64,000 bases of DNA from Candidatus Pacearchaeota archaeon (GTDB lineage Archaea; Nanobdellota; Nanobdellia; Pacearchaeales; GW2011-AR1). The notes beneath the pieces are model-generated. The model saw only the letters and a program-made list of their open reading frames with translations. It was not told the origin of the DNA and did not search any database. The stretch covers positions 1-64,000 of the forward strand of contig JAGVWX010000007.1 in assembly GCA_018304105.1 (NCBI GenBank). The letters run 5' to 3'. Below, one piece after another: positions 6,175 to 32,767 of this stretch. The number at the start of each line of letters is the position of its first letter. The stretch's first letter is position 1. The translations under genes and the position numbers were made by a program.

Positions 6175-6300
6175 GGACGCCTGTGCACTGACGAAGTCTC
6201 ACGATATTCTTCGTGAGAGGCAGCCAGCTGGCGTCTTGATTGGTCGGCTTATTTCTTTCGCTTCAATAGGACTTGCTGTTCAAAAGGCTGCATGTCTTAA
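6175..6300 (+). repeat. Two consecutive covarying GGAC...GTCT hairpins (GGACGCC/GGCGTCT and GGACTTGC/GCATGTCT)
   Basis: GGACGCC 6175-6181 / GGCGTCT 6230-6236; GGACTTGC 6269-6276 / GCATGTCT 6290-6297. Confidence 0.75.
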
Positions 6301-27205: not shown

Positions 27206-27595
27206 CTAGTTAACAAAAATCGTGCTATTGATTTTTCTTATGAGATTTGCGCCTTTCTTCAGCTGGCCTGTGGCGTTGAAGGTTGGGAGGGCCATGGCAT
27301 TTTTGCCGTCGGATGTGTTAAGGTAAACGTAGCCATCGTAAAGGCCTATTGAATATTCTTTGCCGGCAATTGTATTTGGAATGTCAAATTCCCTGGTGTA
27401 ACCGTCTGTTGATTTTGCTGCAATGTTTATTTCATTTTGAATATCTAATGCTAATTCGGTTATTATTATGTTTCTTTGCTCTGCACTTTTCTCCGCGATT
27501 CTTCCCTGGAAAATTCCTACAAAGACTATCACGAAAAAAAAGACTGCTCCAACTAAGAGCATGAATTCGATTGCGGACTGGGCTCTTTTATTCAT
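27206..27595 (-). CDS. Class III signal peptide pilin-like protein
   Basis: MNKRAQSAIEFMLLVGAVFFFVIVFVGIFQGR. Confidence 0.82.
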   Translation of the reverse strand: MNKRAQSAIEFMLLVGAVFFFVIVFVGIFQGRIAEKSAEQRNIIITELALDIQNEINIAAKSTDGYTREFDIPNTIAGKEYSIGLYDGYVYLNTSDGKNAMALPTFNATGQLKKGANLIRKINSTIFVN

Positions 27596-27748
27596 AAGAT
27601 TGTTAGAATCTAAGCGTATATATTGTTTTTGCAAGGATAATAAATTATGATGTCCTACCCGCCCAATTGTCCGCAAACATTGAGGCTGCGGCAATTATTT
27701 GCAACTTCGCCTATTCGCAGATTTTTGGCATTGTTTTTTACCCGCCCA

Positions 27749-27852
27749 ACTCGCAGCCACGCTCGAAATTTGCTAATTATTTGCACTCGCGTAACATGCT
27801 CGCCCACCCGATGCGATGTTGCCTTAGATATCTTGGCGTCTGGCAACATCGC
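27749..27852 (+). repeat. Structured intergenic element: CTCGCAGCCACGCTCG...CTCGCGTAAC motif plus 11-bp perfect hairpin GCGATGTTGCC/GGCAACATCGC
   Basis: 27813-27823 with 27842-27852 perfect inverted repeat; motif shared with other family B copies. Confidence 0.65.
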
Positions 27853-28022: not shown

Positions 28023-28652
28023 TTAATCAGAAAGGACGACTGCGTTTGAGGTTGCGTTCAAATAAATCACTCTCAAGCCGGAAGTTGTTCTGATGTTTCC
28101 TGTGAGGTTGACGTTGCTCTTGTAAGCTGTGACGGAATTGCCTGAACTTGTCGAGACGTTGAAGACAATGTAGTAATCCATTATTCTGATTTCATTGATG
28201 CCGTCGGGGAGATATGCTTTGACGGTTGTTCTTGCCGGATAGCCGGAGTAAAAGACTGTTTCTGACTGGGAAACTATTTTTTGTGAGAAACTTTCTATCT
28301 GGTTGAATTTCATTGTGTCTTTTATTTGTGATGAGTATGTGAGTGCGATGCCAAGAGCGGTTAAGACTATGAAAAGGACGAAAGAAATTACTATGAGATA
28401 TTCTGTGCTGATTTGTCCTTTGTTGAAGATATTTTGGAATTGTTTGCACCCACCCAACTCGCGGTCACGCTCGGGTTGCTTGCTAATTCGCTCGCGTAAC
28501 GCGCTCGCCCGCCCAGATAGTTTTGACTTGCAGTTAACTGACGAAGTCTCACGATATTCTTCGTGAGAGGCAGCCAGGCAAGCTAAATTATTTCTCGCAA
28601 ACAATTCTGGTTTTTCAACAGAATTATTTATTTGTCCTCTTTTGTTTTGCAT
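28023..28652 (-). CDS. Class III signal peptide pilin with in-frame element insertion in its signal peptide
   Basis: MQNKRGQI-[73 aa]-STEYLIVISFVLFIVLTALGIALTYSSQ; see mobile element 28420-28629. Confidence 0.75.
   Translation of the reverse strand: MQNKRGQINNSVEKPELFARNNLACLAASHEEYRETSSVNCKSKLSGRASALRERISKQPERDRELGGCKQFQNIFNKGQISTEYLIVISFVLFIVLTALGIALTYSSQIKDTMKFNQIESFSQKIVSQSETVFYSGYPARTTVKAYLPDGINEIRIMDYYIVFNVSTSSGNSVTAYKSNVNLTGNIRTTSGLRVIYLNATSNAVVLSD
28420..28629 (+). mobile_element. MITE-like structured element (family B) inserted in the pilin gene, flanked by 9-bp direct repeats ATTTGTCCT
   Basis: ATTTGTCCT at 28411-28419 and 28630-28638; ends TTGTTGAAGATATTTTGGAATTGTTTGC / GCAAACAATTCTGGTTTTTCAACA. 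Confidence 0.75.
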
Positions 28653-28719
28653 AACTCTCGGAAGGAAAAGAGATTATTAAAGTTAGTGATTAGTCCGAAG
28701 GATTGTTTATACCTCAATA

Positions 28720-28747
28720 GGACGCCAATTGAGAATGGCTGGCGTCT
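28720..28747 (+). repeat. GGACGCCA/TGGCGTCT hairpin element
   Basis: CAATAGGACGCCA...TGGCGTCTTGATTAG. Confidence 0.8.
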
Positions 28748-28902
28748 TGATTAGTTGGCTCACTTCGTTCGCAAGTTATCATGCCGACTCCGTTAACCGA
28801 TAAGTTGTGGGCTGTCTTTTATTATTTAAGTTTGATTTAGCCGATAACATACGATATTTTTGCTTTTATTAGTTCTTTAACGAAGTTAGTTTACCAATAA
28901 AG

Positions 28903-29010
28903 TTTTAAAATAAAACTTAAGAAATCCTATAATAATTATAGTTAAGATTTTAAAATAAAACTTAAGAAATCCTATAATAATTATAGTTAAGATTTTAAAA
29001 TAAAACTTAA
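28903..29010 (+). repeat. 45-bp tandem repeat, about 2.4 copies
   Basis: TTTTAAAATAAAACTTAAGAAATCCTATAATAATTATAGTTAAGA at 28903, 28948 and partial at 28993. Confidence 0.95.
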
Positions 29011-29072
29011 ATGTTTACATGCATTTACATGCAATTAGTTAAAGTTTTAAAGGTTCATGCTTACTAATAATT

Positions 29073-29634: not shown

Positions 29635-31827
29635 ATGGGAATAGATTTTTTTAACAAGAGAGGTGAAGCGCAAATGCCTGAGATGCCCGGATTGCCGAAG
29701 TTGCCATCACTGCCAAAGAGCAGCGATGAAGAAACGGTAAAGGAAGTAAAGAGCGTTTTGTTTAAGAAGCCGGATGATGAATTTATAAAAAGACATGAGA
29801 AAAGTCATAAAATAAAGGAAGAGGTTAAGAAAAGTCAGAAGATAAAAAGAGGAGCAGGGAAGGGTCATAAAATTAAAAGAAAGAAGTTGAAACATATGCC
29901 GAGAAAGCTGCCTAAGAAATCACGCCGCGAAATTAAAAAAGAAATGAAGAAGCTGGGCCATGAAATTAAAAAGAAGAAGCGGAATGAGCACGGAAAAGAA
30001 AAAGAGCTGGAAGCGAACAGCGCTAAGGCGTTTGTTAAGAAAGGCTCGCTGGTAAAGATTGCGCCAGAGAAATCAAAGAACAGCGAAAAGGTCGAAGGGT
30101 ACCGCTTGGAAGTTGATGGCGCTTATGCAGATGTCGAGTTGAGAAAAGATGAAGAAGGGCTGACTTACCATCTTTCTATTCCGGAGATAAGCACGGTAAC
30201 TTCTATTTTTCTGGATGAGATAAGGAATGAACTTATAAGCGCGACGACGGTCAGCATGAAAGAGCTTACCGACCCGACGCTGTTTTACAGGATTAAGAGA
30301 AGATTTTTGGAAGATTCAAGAAAGCTGCTCAAGGAGAAACTGCCCCATACTGAAAAAGCGGTTGAAGATTTTCTTGTTGGGACGCTGATGCAGGAAATGC
30401 TGGGTTTGGGAAAGATAGAATATCTTATCTCGGACCCGAATCTTGAGGAGATTGTCATTCCGTCTGCGAAAGAGCCAATAAGAATTTATTTTAAGAAATA
30501 TGGGTGGCTGATTACGAATATCAGAATTGACAGAGAAGACGAGATTGTTAATTATGCGAATATAATTTCAAGAAGAATTGGAAGGCAGATAACGGTGTTG
30601 AATCCGCTGCTTGACGCGCATCTCGTCACAGGAGACAGAATCAACGCCGTCTTGTATCCCGTGAGCACGAAGGGAAACACGATTACTATCAGGAAGTTCG
30701 CGAGAGATCCATTCACAATGATTGACATGATAACCGGGAAGACCTGCAATCTTGAAGTTGCGGCACTATTGTGGCTGGCGATTGAGTACGAGATGAACGT
30801 CCTGATTTCAGGCGGAACCGGAAGCGGGAAAACTTCTTTCCTGAATGCGTGCATGCCTTTCATTCCGCCGAACCAGAGAATCATAAGCATTGAGGACACG
30901 CGGGAACTGATGCTGCCGGAATTTTTGTATTGGGCGCCGTTAGTTACGAGAACTCCGAATCCAGAAGGAAAGGGCGAGGTCAGCATGCTCGATTTATTGG
31001 TAAATTCTTTGCGTATGCGCCCCGACAGAATTGTCCTCGGTGAAATGAGAAAACAGCAGGAAGCGATGGTTCTGTTTGAGGCGATGCATACAGGGCATAG
31101 CGTTTATTCTACAGTTCATGCGGATTCTGCTGCCGAGACTATTTCCAGGCTGGTAAATCCACCGCTGAATGTTCCGCCGAATCTGCTGAAGTCCGTGAAT
31201 TTGAATGTTGTTATGTTCAGGGATAGGAGAATGAATAAAAGGAGAGTTTTGCAAGTTGCTGAGTTTGAGGCGGACAAGGGCGGGGCGAAGGCAAATATTC
31301 TTTATAGGCTTATTCCGGACAGGGATGAAATTGTAAAGCACGCCGAGAGTTCGAGATTTTTTGAAGATGTGACTCGAAATACGGGCATGTCTGATGTAGA
31401 AGTCAATGAAGCGCTGAAGGAAAAGATGCGAATCCTTGAATGGATGATAAAAAATGGCTTGCGAAGCCTGGAGGAAATGGGAAGGGTGACGAACCTTTAT
31501 TACAGAAACAAAGAATTGCTGATGAAAGCGATCCAGCAGAATAATAAAAATTTGGTTATGAAGCAGGTTAAGAAGGAAGAGGAGAAGGCGAATAAGATAA
31601 TTGCAATTGAGAGAGAAGATAAATTTGTTTTGGCAGAAGAAAAGAAAGAGATGCCTGCAGAAGGAAAGAAAGAGATGCCTGCAGAAGAAAAGAAAGAGAT
31701 GCCTGCAGAAGAAAAGAAAAGCTCTGGTGAATTAGAGAATAAACAGACAATTGCCAAGCTTGACGAGCAGAAAGCAGTTGAAAAAATTCTAGGCAAAGAT
31801 TTTAAACAAAAATTGGCTTGGAAGTGA
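29635..31827 (+). CDS. Type II/IV secretion system ATPase (PilB/TadA/ArlI family)
   Basis: LISGGTGSGKTSFLNACMPFIPPNQRIISIEDTREL, LRMRPDRIVLGEMR, AMHTGHSVYSTVHADSA. Confidence 0.95.
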   Translation: MGIDFFNKRGEAQMPEMPGLPKLPSLPKSSDEETVKEVKSVLFKKPDDEFIKRHEKSHKIKEEVKKSQKIKRGAGKGHKIKRKKLKHMPRKLPKKSRREIKKEMKKLGHEIKKKKRNEHGKEKELEANSAKAFVKKGSLVKIAPEKSKNSEKVEGYRLEVDGAYADVELRKDEEGLTYHLSIPEISTVTSIFLDEIRNELISATTVSMKELTDPTLFYRIKRRFLEDSRKLLKEKLPHTEKAVEDFLVGTLMQEMLGLGKIEYLISDPNLEEIVIPSAKEPIRIYFKKYGWLITNIRIDREDEIVNYANIISRRIGRQITVLNPLLDAHLVTGDRINAVLYPVSTKGNTITIRKFARDPFTMIDMITGKTCNLEVAALLWLAIEYEMNVLISGGTGSGKTSFLNACMPFIPPNQRIISIEDTRELMLPEFLYWAPLVTRTPNPEGKGEVSMLDLLVNSLRMRPDRIVLGEMRKQQEAMVLFEAMHTGHSVYSTVHADSAAETISRLVNPPLNVPPNLLKSVNLNVVMFRDRRMNKRRVLQVAEFEADKGGAKANILYRLIPDRDEIVKHAESSRFFEDVTRNTGMSDVEVNEALKEKMRILEWMIKNGLRSLEEMGRVTNLYYRNKELLMKAIQQNNKNLVMKQVKKEEEKANKIIAIEREDKFVLAEEKKEMPAEGKKEMPAEEKKEMPAEEKKSSGELENKQTIAKLDEQKAVEKILGKDFKQKLAWK

Positions 31828-31831
31828 TAAA

Positions 31832-32767
31832 ATGAAATTTAATAATAGTTCTAGTTCTTTTTTGGTTGGGAAGAAGCCGAAGAGGATGCCCTTTAGAGTG
31901 CCGTTTTCTTTTTCTCAATTAGACAAGCTAAAAAAGCGTTCTGCTGTTTTTAAGAGATTTGCCGGATACAAGCGAGACACTTTACTTTTTAAGAATTTGA
32001 AAAATGCCGGAGTCGATTTGACGAGAGAAGAGTATCTCGCAATTTGCGTCGGAGGATTTGTTATCTCGTTTTTATCTTTGTTCATTTTGTCTTCGACTCT
32101 TTTGATTGTGATGCAGGTTGAGAGAGCATTAGTTCTTGCTCTGGGCTTTGCTTTTCTGTTCGGGGGTTTTGTTTTTTTCAGCCGACTGATTTATCCGAAG
32201 GTTTACAACAACAGAAAGCAGAGAAACATCGAGAGGAATCTTATTCCGGCATTGCAGGACATGCTGGTTCAGCTTTATTCGGGAGTTCCTTTGTTCACGA
32301 TTATGATTAATATTTCTCTCGCGGATTATGAGGAATTGAGCGAGCAGTTCAAGAAAGCGGTGAAAGGAATAAATGCGGGAAGGCCGCAGATAGAAGTTTT
32401 GGAAGAGTTGGGAAAGGATAATCCTTCTGAGTTTTTCAAGAAAGCACTTTGGCAGATAAGCAATGGGATGAGGGCAGGAAGCGATATTTCGATTGTTATT
32501 CAAGACACAGTGAAGTCTTTGAGCGAGGAACAGTACATCCAGATTCAGGAATATGGAAACAAGCTGAATCCGGCAATTATGTTTTATATGCTGTCTTCGG
32601 TGATTTTGCCAGCGCTGGCTATAACTTTTCTTACGATTATCTCTTCGATAGTTGGCCTTTCTGAGGCGCTGACGCAGATGATTTTTCTTGGAATGTTTGT
32701 CGGAGTTGTAGTTATTCAAATATTGTTTTTGGGAGTTATAAAATCAGTGAGGCCGAGTTTGCTGTAA
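31832..32767 (+). CDS. Type II secretion system F/TadC/ArlJ-like membrane protein 1
   Basis: Follows ATPase; LIPALQDMLVQLYSGVPLFTIMINI..., multi-TM. Confidence 0.85.
   Translation: MKFNNSSSSFLVGKKPKRMPFRVPFSFSQLDKLKKRSAVFKRFAGYKRDTLLFKNLKNAGVDLTREEYLAICVGGFVISFLSLFILSSTLLIVMQVERALVLALGFAFLFGGFVFFSRLIYPKVYNNRKQRNIERNLIPALQDMLVQLYSGVPLFTIMINISLADYEELSEQFKKAVKGINAGRPQIEVLEELGKDNPSEFFKKALWQISNGMRAGSDISIVIQDTVKSLSEEQYIQIQEYGNKLNPAIMFYMLSSVILPALAITFLTIISSIVGLSEALTQMIFLGMFVGVVVIQILFLGVIKSVRPSLL

What the first reader, a model, noticed from the sequence alone, without database searches (positions are those of the whole stretch)
28411..28638. Structured element inserted in frame into the signal peptide of a pilin, with 9-bp direct repeats
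The minus-strand ORF reads MQNKRGQI-[73 aa]-STEYLIVISFVLFIVLTALG. Removing 219 nt restores MQNKRGQISTEYLIV, a textbook class III prepilin signal. The insert is bounded by direct repeats ATTTGTCCT (28411-28419, 28630-28638) and has inverted ends TTGTTGAAGATATTTTGGAATTGTTTGC / GCAAACAATTCTGGTTTTTCAACA. This looks like a target-site duplication and gives the family mobile (MITE-like) character. The 210-bp element is a multiple of 3 and has no stop in this frame, so the gene stays open. Inference: either a tolerated N-terminal extension, a new TTG start inside the element (near ELGGC), excision at DNA or RNA level, or a dying gene.
Basis: partly seen in the sequence, partly recalled or inferred. 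Interest (0 to 1): 0.82.

Follow-up and report, generated by a model that had tools for sequence, protein, structure and literature searches.

The report
In-frame MITE inside archaeal pilin leader
A small non-autonomous jumping element, of a family found only in one genus of tiny uncultured archaea, has landed inside the very start of a pilus-protein gene without breaking the reading frame, so the cell probably makes the pilin with a 73-residue junk leader that the normal leader-cutting enzyme could still remove.

Summary
A net 219-bp insert splits the class III prepilin signal of a minus-strand pilin gene (ORF 28023-28652). Pilin orthologues in at least six genomes of the same genus have the uninterrupted signal, so the insert is lineage-specific. 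It belongs to a dispersed palindromic family: about 20 cores in this 1.05-Mb MAG, found in 5 of 10 genomes of the genus and in none of 35 other genera of the family. Its ends match those of an intact 873-bp IS5-family insertion sequence in a sister genome, which has an exact 9-bp target duplication and a 224-bp MITE beside it. So it is an IS5-derived MITE. The insert is in frame, stop-free and rebuilds KG|QISTEY, the peptidase site. The pilin body shows purifying selection and no acceleration. The likeliest outcome is a tolerated leader extension cleaved off by the prepilin peptidase (inferred). Beyond the finding, the family core (two covarying stems and a G-tract motif) also rides in a second MITE with unrelated ends. 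A second gene (LPG_synthase_TM) carries an in-frame insert containing one of the family's nested hairpins.

The parts
28023..28652 (-). Type IV pilin-like gene with interrupted class III prepilin signal; ancestral ATG at 28650-28652
   Evidence: orthologues; the secretion ATPase T2SSE and T2SSF genes lie at 29635-32767
28416..28625 (-). MITE copy by family termini (AATTCTGTTGAAAAA ... TTCAACAAAGGA), 210 bp
   Evidence: termini aligned with the G008 IS5-family IS and with G001 minimal copies
28630..28638 (.).
28411..28419 (.).
28407..28415 (.). Target duplication copy in the family register, CAAATCAGC on the minus strand; partner is CAAATAAAT at 28626-28634
   Evidence: register 0 supported family-wide
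28597..28607 (-). Core stem P1, 5' arm GAATTGTTTGC
28437..28447 (-). Core stem P1, 3' arm GCAAACAATTC
28522..28587 (-). Core stem P2 (28578-28587 with 28522-28531), carrying nested hairpin module A in its loop
28537..28577 (-). Nested hairpin module A, 41 bp, identical to 6187-6227
28456..28507 (-). Nested module B, lying between G-tracts GGGCGGG (28508-28514) and GGGTGGG (28449-28455)
28455..28457 (-). In-frame TTG, possible alternative start (14-residue leader MGGCKQFQNIFNKG)
   Evidence: sequence
28653..29072 (.). Expanded 420-bp divergent intergenic region (about 50 bp in G008) with dispersed hairpin module C; TATA-like TTTAATAA at 28674-28681

Best explanation
A non-autonomous IS5-family MITE, moved in trans by a transposase like the one intact in the sister genome G008, inserted into codons 7-9 of the pilin gene and generated a 9-bp target duplication. 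Net length 219 bp is a multiple of 3, one sense frame of this copy has no stop, and the right junction reads F-N-K-G-Q-I-S-T-E-Y, so the prepilin peptidase site (KG|Q, Glu at +5) is recreated. Translation most likely still begins at the ancestral ATG and gives a roughly 80-residue, probably disordered leader ending at the same cleavage point, which the prepilin peptidase removes, so the mature pilin is unchanged. Shown: the insertion, family, ends, frame, site and purifying selection on the gene body. Inferred: translation from the ATG, cleavage and function (about 0.5 for this route, 0.2 internal TTG, 0.25 loss of function, 0.05 excision).
For: Orthologues with an uninterrupted signal at 75% and 65% identity and below. 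Copies across the genome and genus. Terminal pattern GGCTTTGTTGAAAAA 55 hits against 11 for the reversed control, many in inverted pairs. 9-bp flank identity 4.1 of 9 against 2.4 in shuffles, no shuffle of 20,000 as high, peak at register 0. Intact IS in G008 with the same ends, exact 9-bp duplication TGCAGAACC and an adjacent 224-bp MITE; transposase NF033579 IS5, E 4e-43, above cut-off. EppA-type sites RAQI/KGQI/KGQV need +1 Gln (PMC4371748). Prepilin peptidase PF01478 in the same genome. dN 0.16 against dS 2.3 (saturated) versus G008, and G000 is closer to outgroup G002 (64%) than G008 is (56.5%). Extension modelled at pLDDT below 50, long helix plus beta domain from residue 83.
Against: No transposase of this type was found in the own genome (the MAG is 89% complete). 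In the family's register the target duplication matches only 6 of 9. Archaeal prepilin leaders are usually 6-12 residues (PMC4187195), so a leader of about 80 residues is unusual. The gene's promoter region has also been enlarged. Purifying selection may date from before the insertion. No fold match to solved pilins.
Confidence: 0.75

Rival explanations
1. Same MITE, but translation starts at the TTG inside the element (28455-28457), giving a 14-residue leader MGGCKQFQNIFNKG|QISTEY of near-normal length.
For: In-frame TTG 14 codons before the cleavage point with a GTGA 7 nt upstream; normal leaders are 6-12 residues.
Against: The ancestral ATG is kept with a TATA-like box about 29 nt upstream; a TTG start needs internal initiation on a structured RNA.
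Confidence: 0.2
2. The insertion disables the pilin and the gene is decaying.
For: Unusually long leader; the intergenic region is expanded from about 50 to 420 bp with further repeats.
Against: ORF open over 209 codons; no relaxed rate; frame and cleavage site kept although a random insert would keep the frame open in about 1% of cases (times one third for length).
Confidence: 0.25
3. The segment is removed from DNA or RNA before translation.
For: Direct repeats would allow precise excision; inverted ends form a stem.
Against: No bulge-helix-bulge or intron-like structure at the ends; no Rfam match; no transposase of this type found in the genome.
Confidence: 0.05
4. Rickettsia-palindromic-element-like coding repeat: a family selected to be inserted in reading frames.
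For: In-frame, open, palindromic; a second gene (LPG_synthase_TM, own contig C17) carries an in-frame insert containing nested module B, absent in G008, G003 and G009.
Against: The pilin frame is open in only 3 of 13 family copies; none of the other core copies clearly spans a recognisable gene.
Confidence: 0.1

Closest known systems
IS5-family insertion sequences and their MITEs
   Same: DDE_Tnp_1/IS5 transposase, GGCTYTGTTGAAAA ends (recalled as similar to the IS903 end), 9-bp target duplication, short non-autonomous copies with the same ends
   Different: Interior is not a deleted IS but a structured core with nested hairpins; genus-restricted
Rickettsia palindromic elements (RPE)
   Same: About 150-bp palindromes inserted in frame into unrelated protein genes (review PMC10969869)
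   Different: No conserved coding frame in this family, which is mainly intergenic; ends and transposase partner are identified. Sequence relation was not tested
Coxiella QMITE1/QMITE2
   Same: MITEs giving in-frame extensions of proteins (PMC5896051)
   Different: Different host domain; the cases described there are not a prepilin leader
Sulfolobus and Haloquadratum MITEs
   Same: Archaeal MITEs (listed in PMC10969869)
   Different: DPANN host; in-frame placement in a prepilin signal; no DPANN MITE report turned up in the held library

Membership tests
MITE (non-autonomous IS derivative) | Terminal inverted repeats | tested here: met
MITE (non-autonomous IS derivative) | Target-site duplication | tested here: met
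   Family-wide at 9 bp and exact in G008; for the pilin copy the register is ambiguous (9/9 offset by 4 bp, or 6/9 in register)
MITE (non-autonomous IS derivative) | Multiple dispersed copies, no transposase gene | tested here: met
MITE (non-autonomous IS derivative) | Autonomous partner with the same ends | tested here: met
   G008 C154 IS, in a sister genome only
MITE (non-autonomous IS derivative) | Demonstrated mobilisation | not testable with these tools
   Relatives without the insert show past insertion only
IS5-family derived | IS5-type transposase bounded by these ends | tested here: met
   NF033579 above cut-off for the IS whose ends are shared; action on the MITE itself not shown
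Rickettsia palindromic element | Conserved open frame shared by copies | tested here: not met
   3 of 13 copies open in the pilin frame
Rickettsia palindromic element | Frequent in-frame insertion in genes | tested here: not met
   One clear core copy of about 20 in a gene, plus one insert containing nested module B
Class III prepilin (EppA-type substrate) | K/R-G|Q, Glu at +5, hydrophobic stretch | tested here: met
   sequence
Class III prepilin (EppA-type substrate) | Short leader of about 6-12 residues | tested here: not met
   79 residues from the ancestral ATG, 14 from the internal TTG
Archaeal intron | Bulge-helix-bulge at the junctions | tested here: not met
   by inspection of predicted folds

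The most novel reading that the evidence does not exclude
The core (stem P1, stem P2, conserved AAACTATCTGGG and four G-tracts able in principle to form a G-quadruplex) is an independent, structurally selected nucleic-acid module, specific to one archaeal genus, that has been taken up by at least two MITE carriers with unrelated ends and in turn collects further hairpins in its loops.
Probability: 0.35. Interest if true: 0.72.

Novelty: new variant of a known kind. Interest (0 to 1): 0.55.

Why it matters
It is a clean case, with relatives lacking the insert and an identified transposase partner, of a mobile palindrome entering a surface-filament gene at one of the few places where extra residues are discarded during maturation. 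It makes the tolerated-extension idea testable: how long a leader can an archaeal prepilin peptidase accept? The shared structured core in two carriers suggests that a selected DNA or RNA structure, not only the ends, helps these elements spread.

Tried and rejected
Rfam at gathering and at E-value threshold gave no RNA family for the element. Intron or RNA excision: no bulge-helix-bulge seen in the folds. RPE-like coding repeat: frame not conserved. The own genome has no detected IS5 transposase. Pfam gave no pilin model and the structure search no significant match; pilin identity rests on the signal, orthologues, neighbours and the predicted helix-plus-sheet architecture.

Full report
Observation. 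The minus-strand ORF 28023-28652 encodes MQNKRGQI followed by 73 residues and then STEYLIVISFVLFIVLTALG. ATTTGTCCT occurs exactly at 28411-28419 and 28630-28638. The inverted ends exist, and both strands fold better than dinucleotide shuffles. The net insert is 219 bp, with no stop in the pilin frame against 7 and 1 in the other sense frames.

The insert is lineage-specific. Six same-genus genomes in which the orthologue's N-terminus was read (G008, G002, G006, G004, G001, G005) have it intact, for example MQNMKRGQISTEYLIV in G008 at 75% identity and MQKEKRGQISTEYVII in G002 at 65%. More distant relatives also have an uninterrupted class III signal. The G008 site reads AGAGGCCAAATCAGCACAG, which contains one copy of the repeat with a single difference. 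These are other species, not strains of the same species.

It is a family. The insert matches 25 stretches of the 1.05-Mb genome and stretches in G001, G002 and G008. A covariance model of the core finds 20 matches here (one of them a palindrome's opposite strand), 12, 9, 5 and 5 in G001, G002, G003 and G008, none in the other five genomes of the genus, and none in 35 other genera of the taxonomic family. Counts are lower bounds, because only a limited number of candidates was scored per genome.

It moves by an IS5-type system (inferred from ends and partner). The terminal pattern GGCTTTGTTGAAAAA gives 55 hits in the own genome against 11 for the reversed control, often as inverted pairs 130-360 bp apart. 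In 18 such pairs the 9 bp outside the ends agree at 4.1 positions against 2.4 after shuffling, with a peak at register 0. In sister genome G008 an 873-bp element has GGCTCTGTTGAAAAAGTCT and GGCTTTGTTGAAAATCTCT ends, the exact 9-bp duplication TGCAGAACC, and a transposase that passes the NCBIfam IS5 cut-off. A 224-bp MITE with the same ends lies beside it, flanked by the same 9-mer. The resemblance of the ends to IS903 is recalled, not tested.

Register of the duplication. Aligned on the family ends, the pilin copy runs from AATTCTGTTGAAAAA to TTCAACAAAGGA (28416-28625), and the duplicated 9-mer is CAAATCAGC, its left copy changed to CAAATAAAT. I cannot decide between decay from the family register and an unusual insertion. 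Length, frame and conclusion are the same.

Anatomy of the copy. P1 is 28597-28607 with 28437-28447. P2 is 28578-28587 with 28522-28531. Module A, a 41-bp hairpin identical to 6187-6227, sits in the P2 loop, and module B separates the G-tract pairs. Across 14 copies 11 of 21 pairs change on both sides; across 35 distinct sequences 18 of 21 do. No shuffle of 500 reaches the covariation score and slid controls fail. The second alignment was fitted to the model and so leans towards it; the first was aligned without the structure, but after I had removed nested modules by hand, and the structure was drawn from the same sequences.

Consequence for the pilin. At the right junction the protein reads NKG|QISTEY. 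The literature gives RAQI, KGQI and KGQV as EppA sites, with +1 Gln required (PMC4371748), and leaders of usually 6-12 residues (PMC4187195). The genome encodes a prepilin peptidase (PF01478). The body of the gene is conserved (dN 0.16, dS 2.3 and saturated, versus G008) and is nearer to the outgroup G002 than the uninterrupted G008 gene is, so there is no sign of relaxation, though this mostly averages over time before the insertion. The model puts residues 1-80 below or near pLDDT 50 and a long helix plus beta domain after residue 83. I favour translation from the ancestral ATG with removal of the extended leader; the in-frame TTG at 28455-28457 is the main alternative.

Upstream. The divergent intergenic region is 420 bp against about 50 bp in G008, and it holds dispersed module C. 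A TATA-like TTTAATAA lies 29 nt before the ATG, about the distance seen in relatives. This is inspection only.

Wider context. In G001 and G002 the same core sits between other ends (CAGTATCTCCGCA...TGCGGAGATACTG; 16 and 20 exact 12-mer hits, none in controls). A second gene of this genome, an LPG_synthase_TM homologue on contig C17, has an in-frame insert of about 65 residues that includes module B and is absent in G008, G003 and G009, while G001 has a different insert at the same place. Known precedents for in-frame MITEs are RPEs (as reviewed in PMC10969869) and Coxiella QMITEs (PMC5896051); the family here is not filed as an RPE because its copies share no open frame.

Noticed in passing
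L152, L157, L161, L165, L170 (G002); L150, L164, L169, L172 (G001): The same two-stem, G-tract core lies in a second MITE with unrelated ends CAGTATCTCCGCA/TGCGGAGATACTG, several copies in G002 nearly identical and at contig ends, suggesting recent activity.
   Followed up: partly
A2 alignment; e.g. L143:1501-1588: Conserved GGGCGGGNGGGTGGG in the core is a G-quadruplex motif; about half of distinct copies keep four tracts.
   Followed up: partly
window 28537-28577, 6187-6227; L021 near 1220-1550: Small hairpin modules sit in the loops of other hairpins (Russian-doll palindromes), including module A in a module-C loop at 6187-6227.
   Followed up: partly
L006:969-2117 (own contig C17:41986-43134): LPG_synthase_TM homologue with an in-frame insert of about 65 residues containing module B, absent in G008, G003, G009; G001 has a different insert at the same place.
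   Followed up: partly
window 28898-29040: Tandem copies of TTAAGTTTTATTTTAAAATCTTAACTATAATTATTATAGGATTTC-like units between the pilin and the divergent gene.
   Followed up: no
window 27206-27694 (-) and 27719-27809: A second prepilin-like gene (MNKRAQSAIEFMLLV) follows, with a module-B repeat between the two pilin genes.
   Followed up: no
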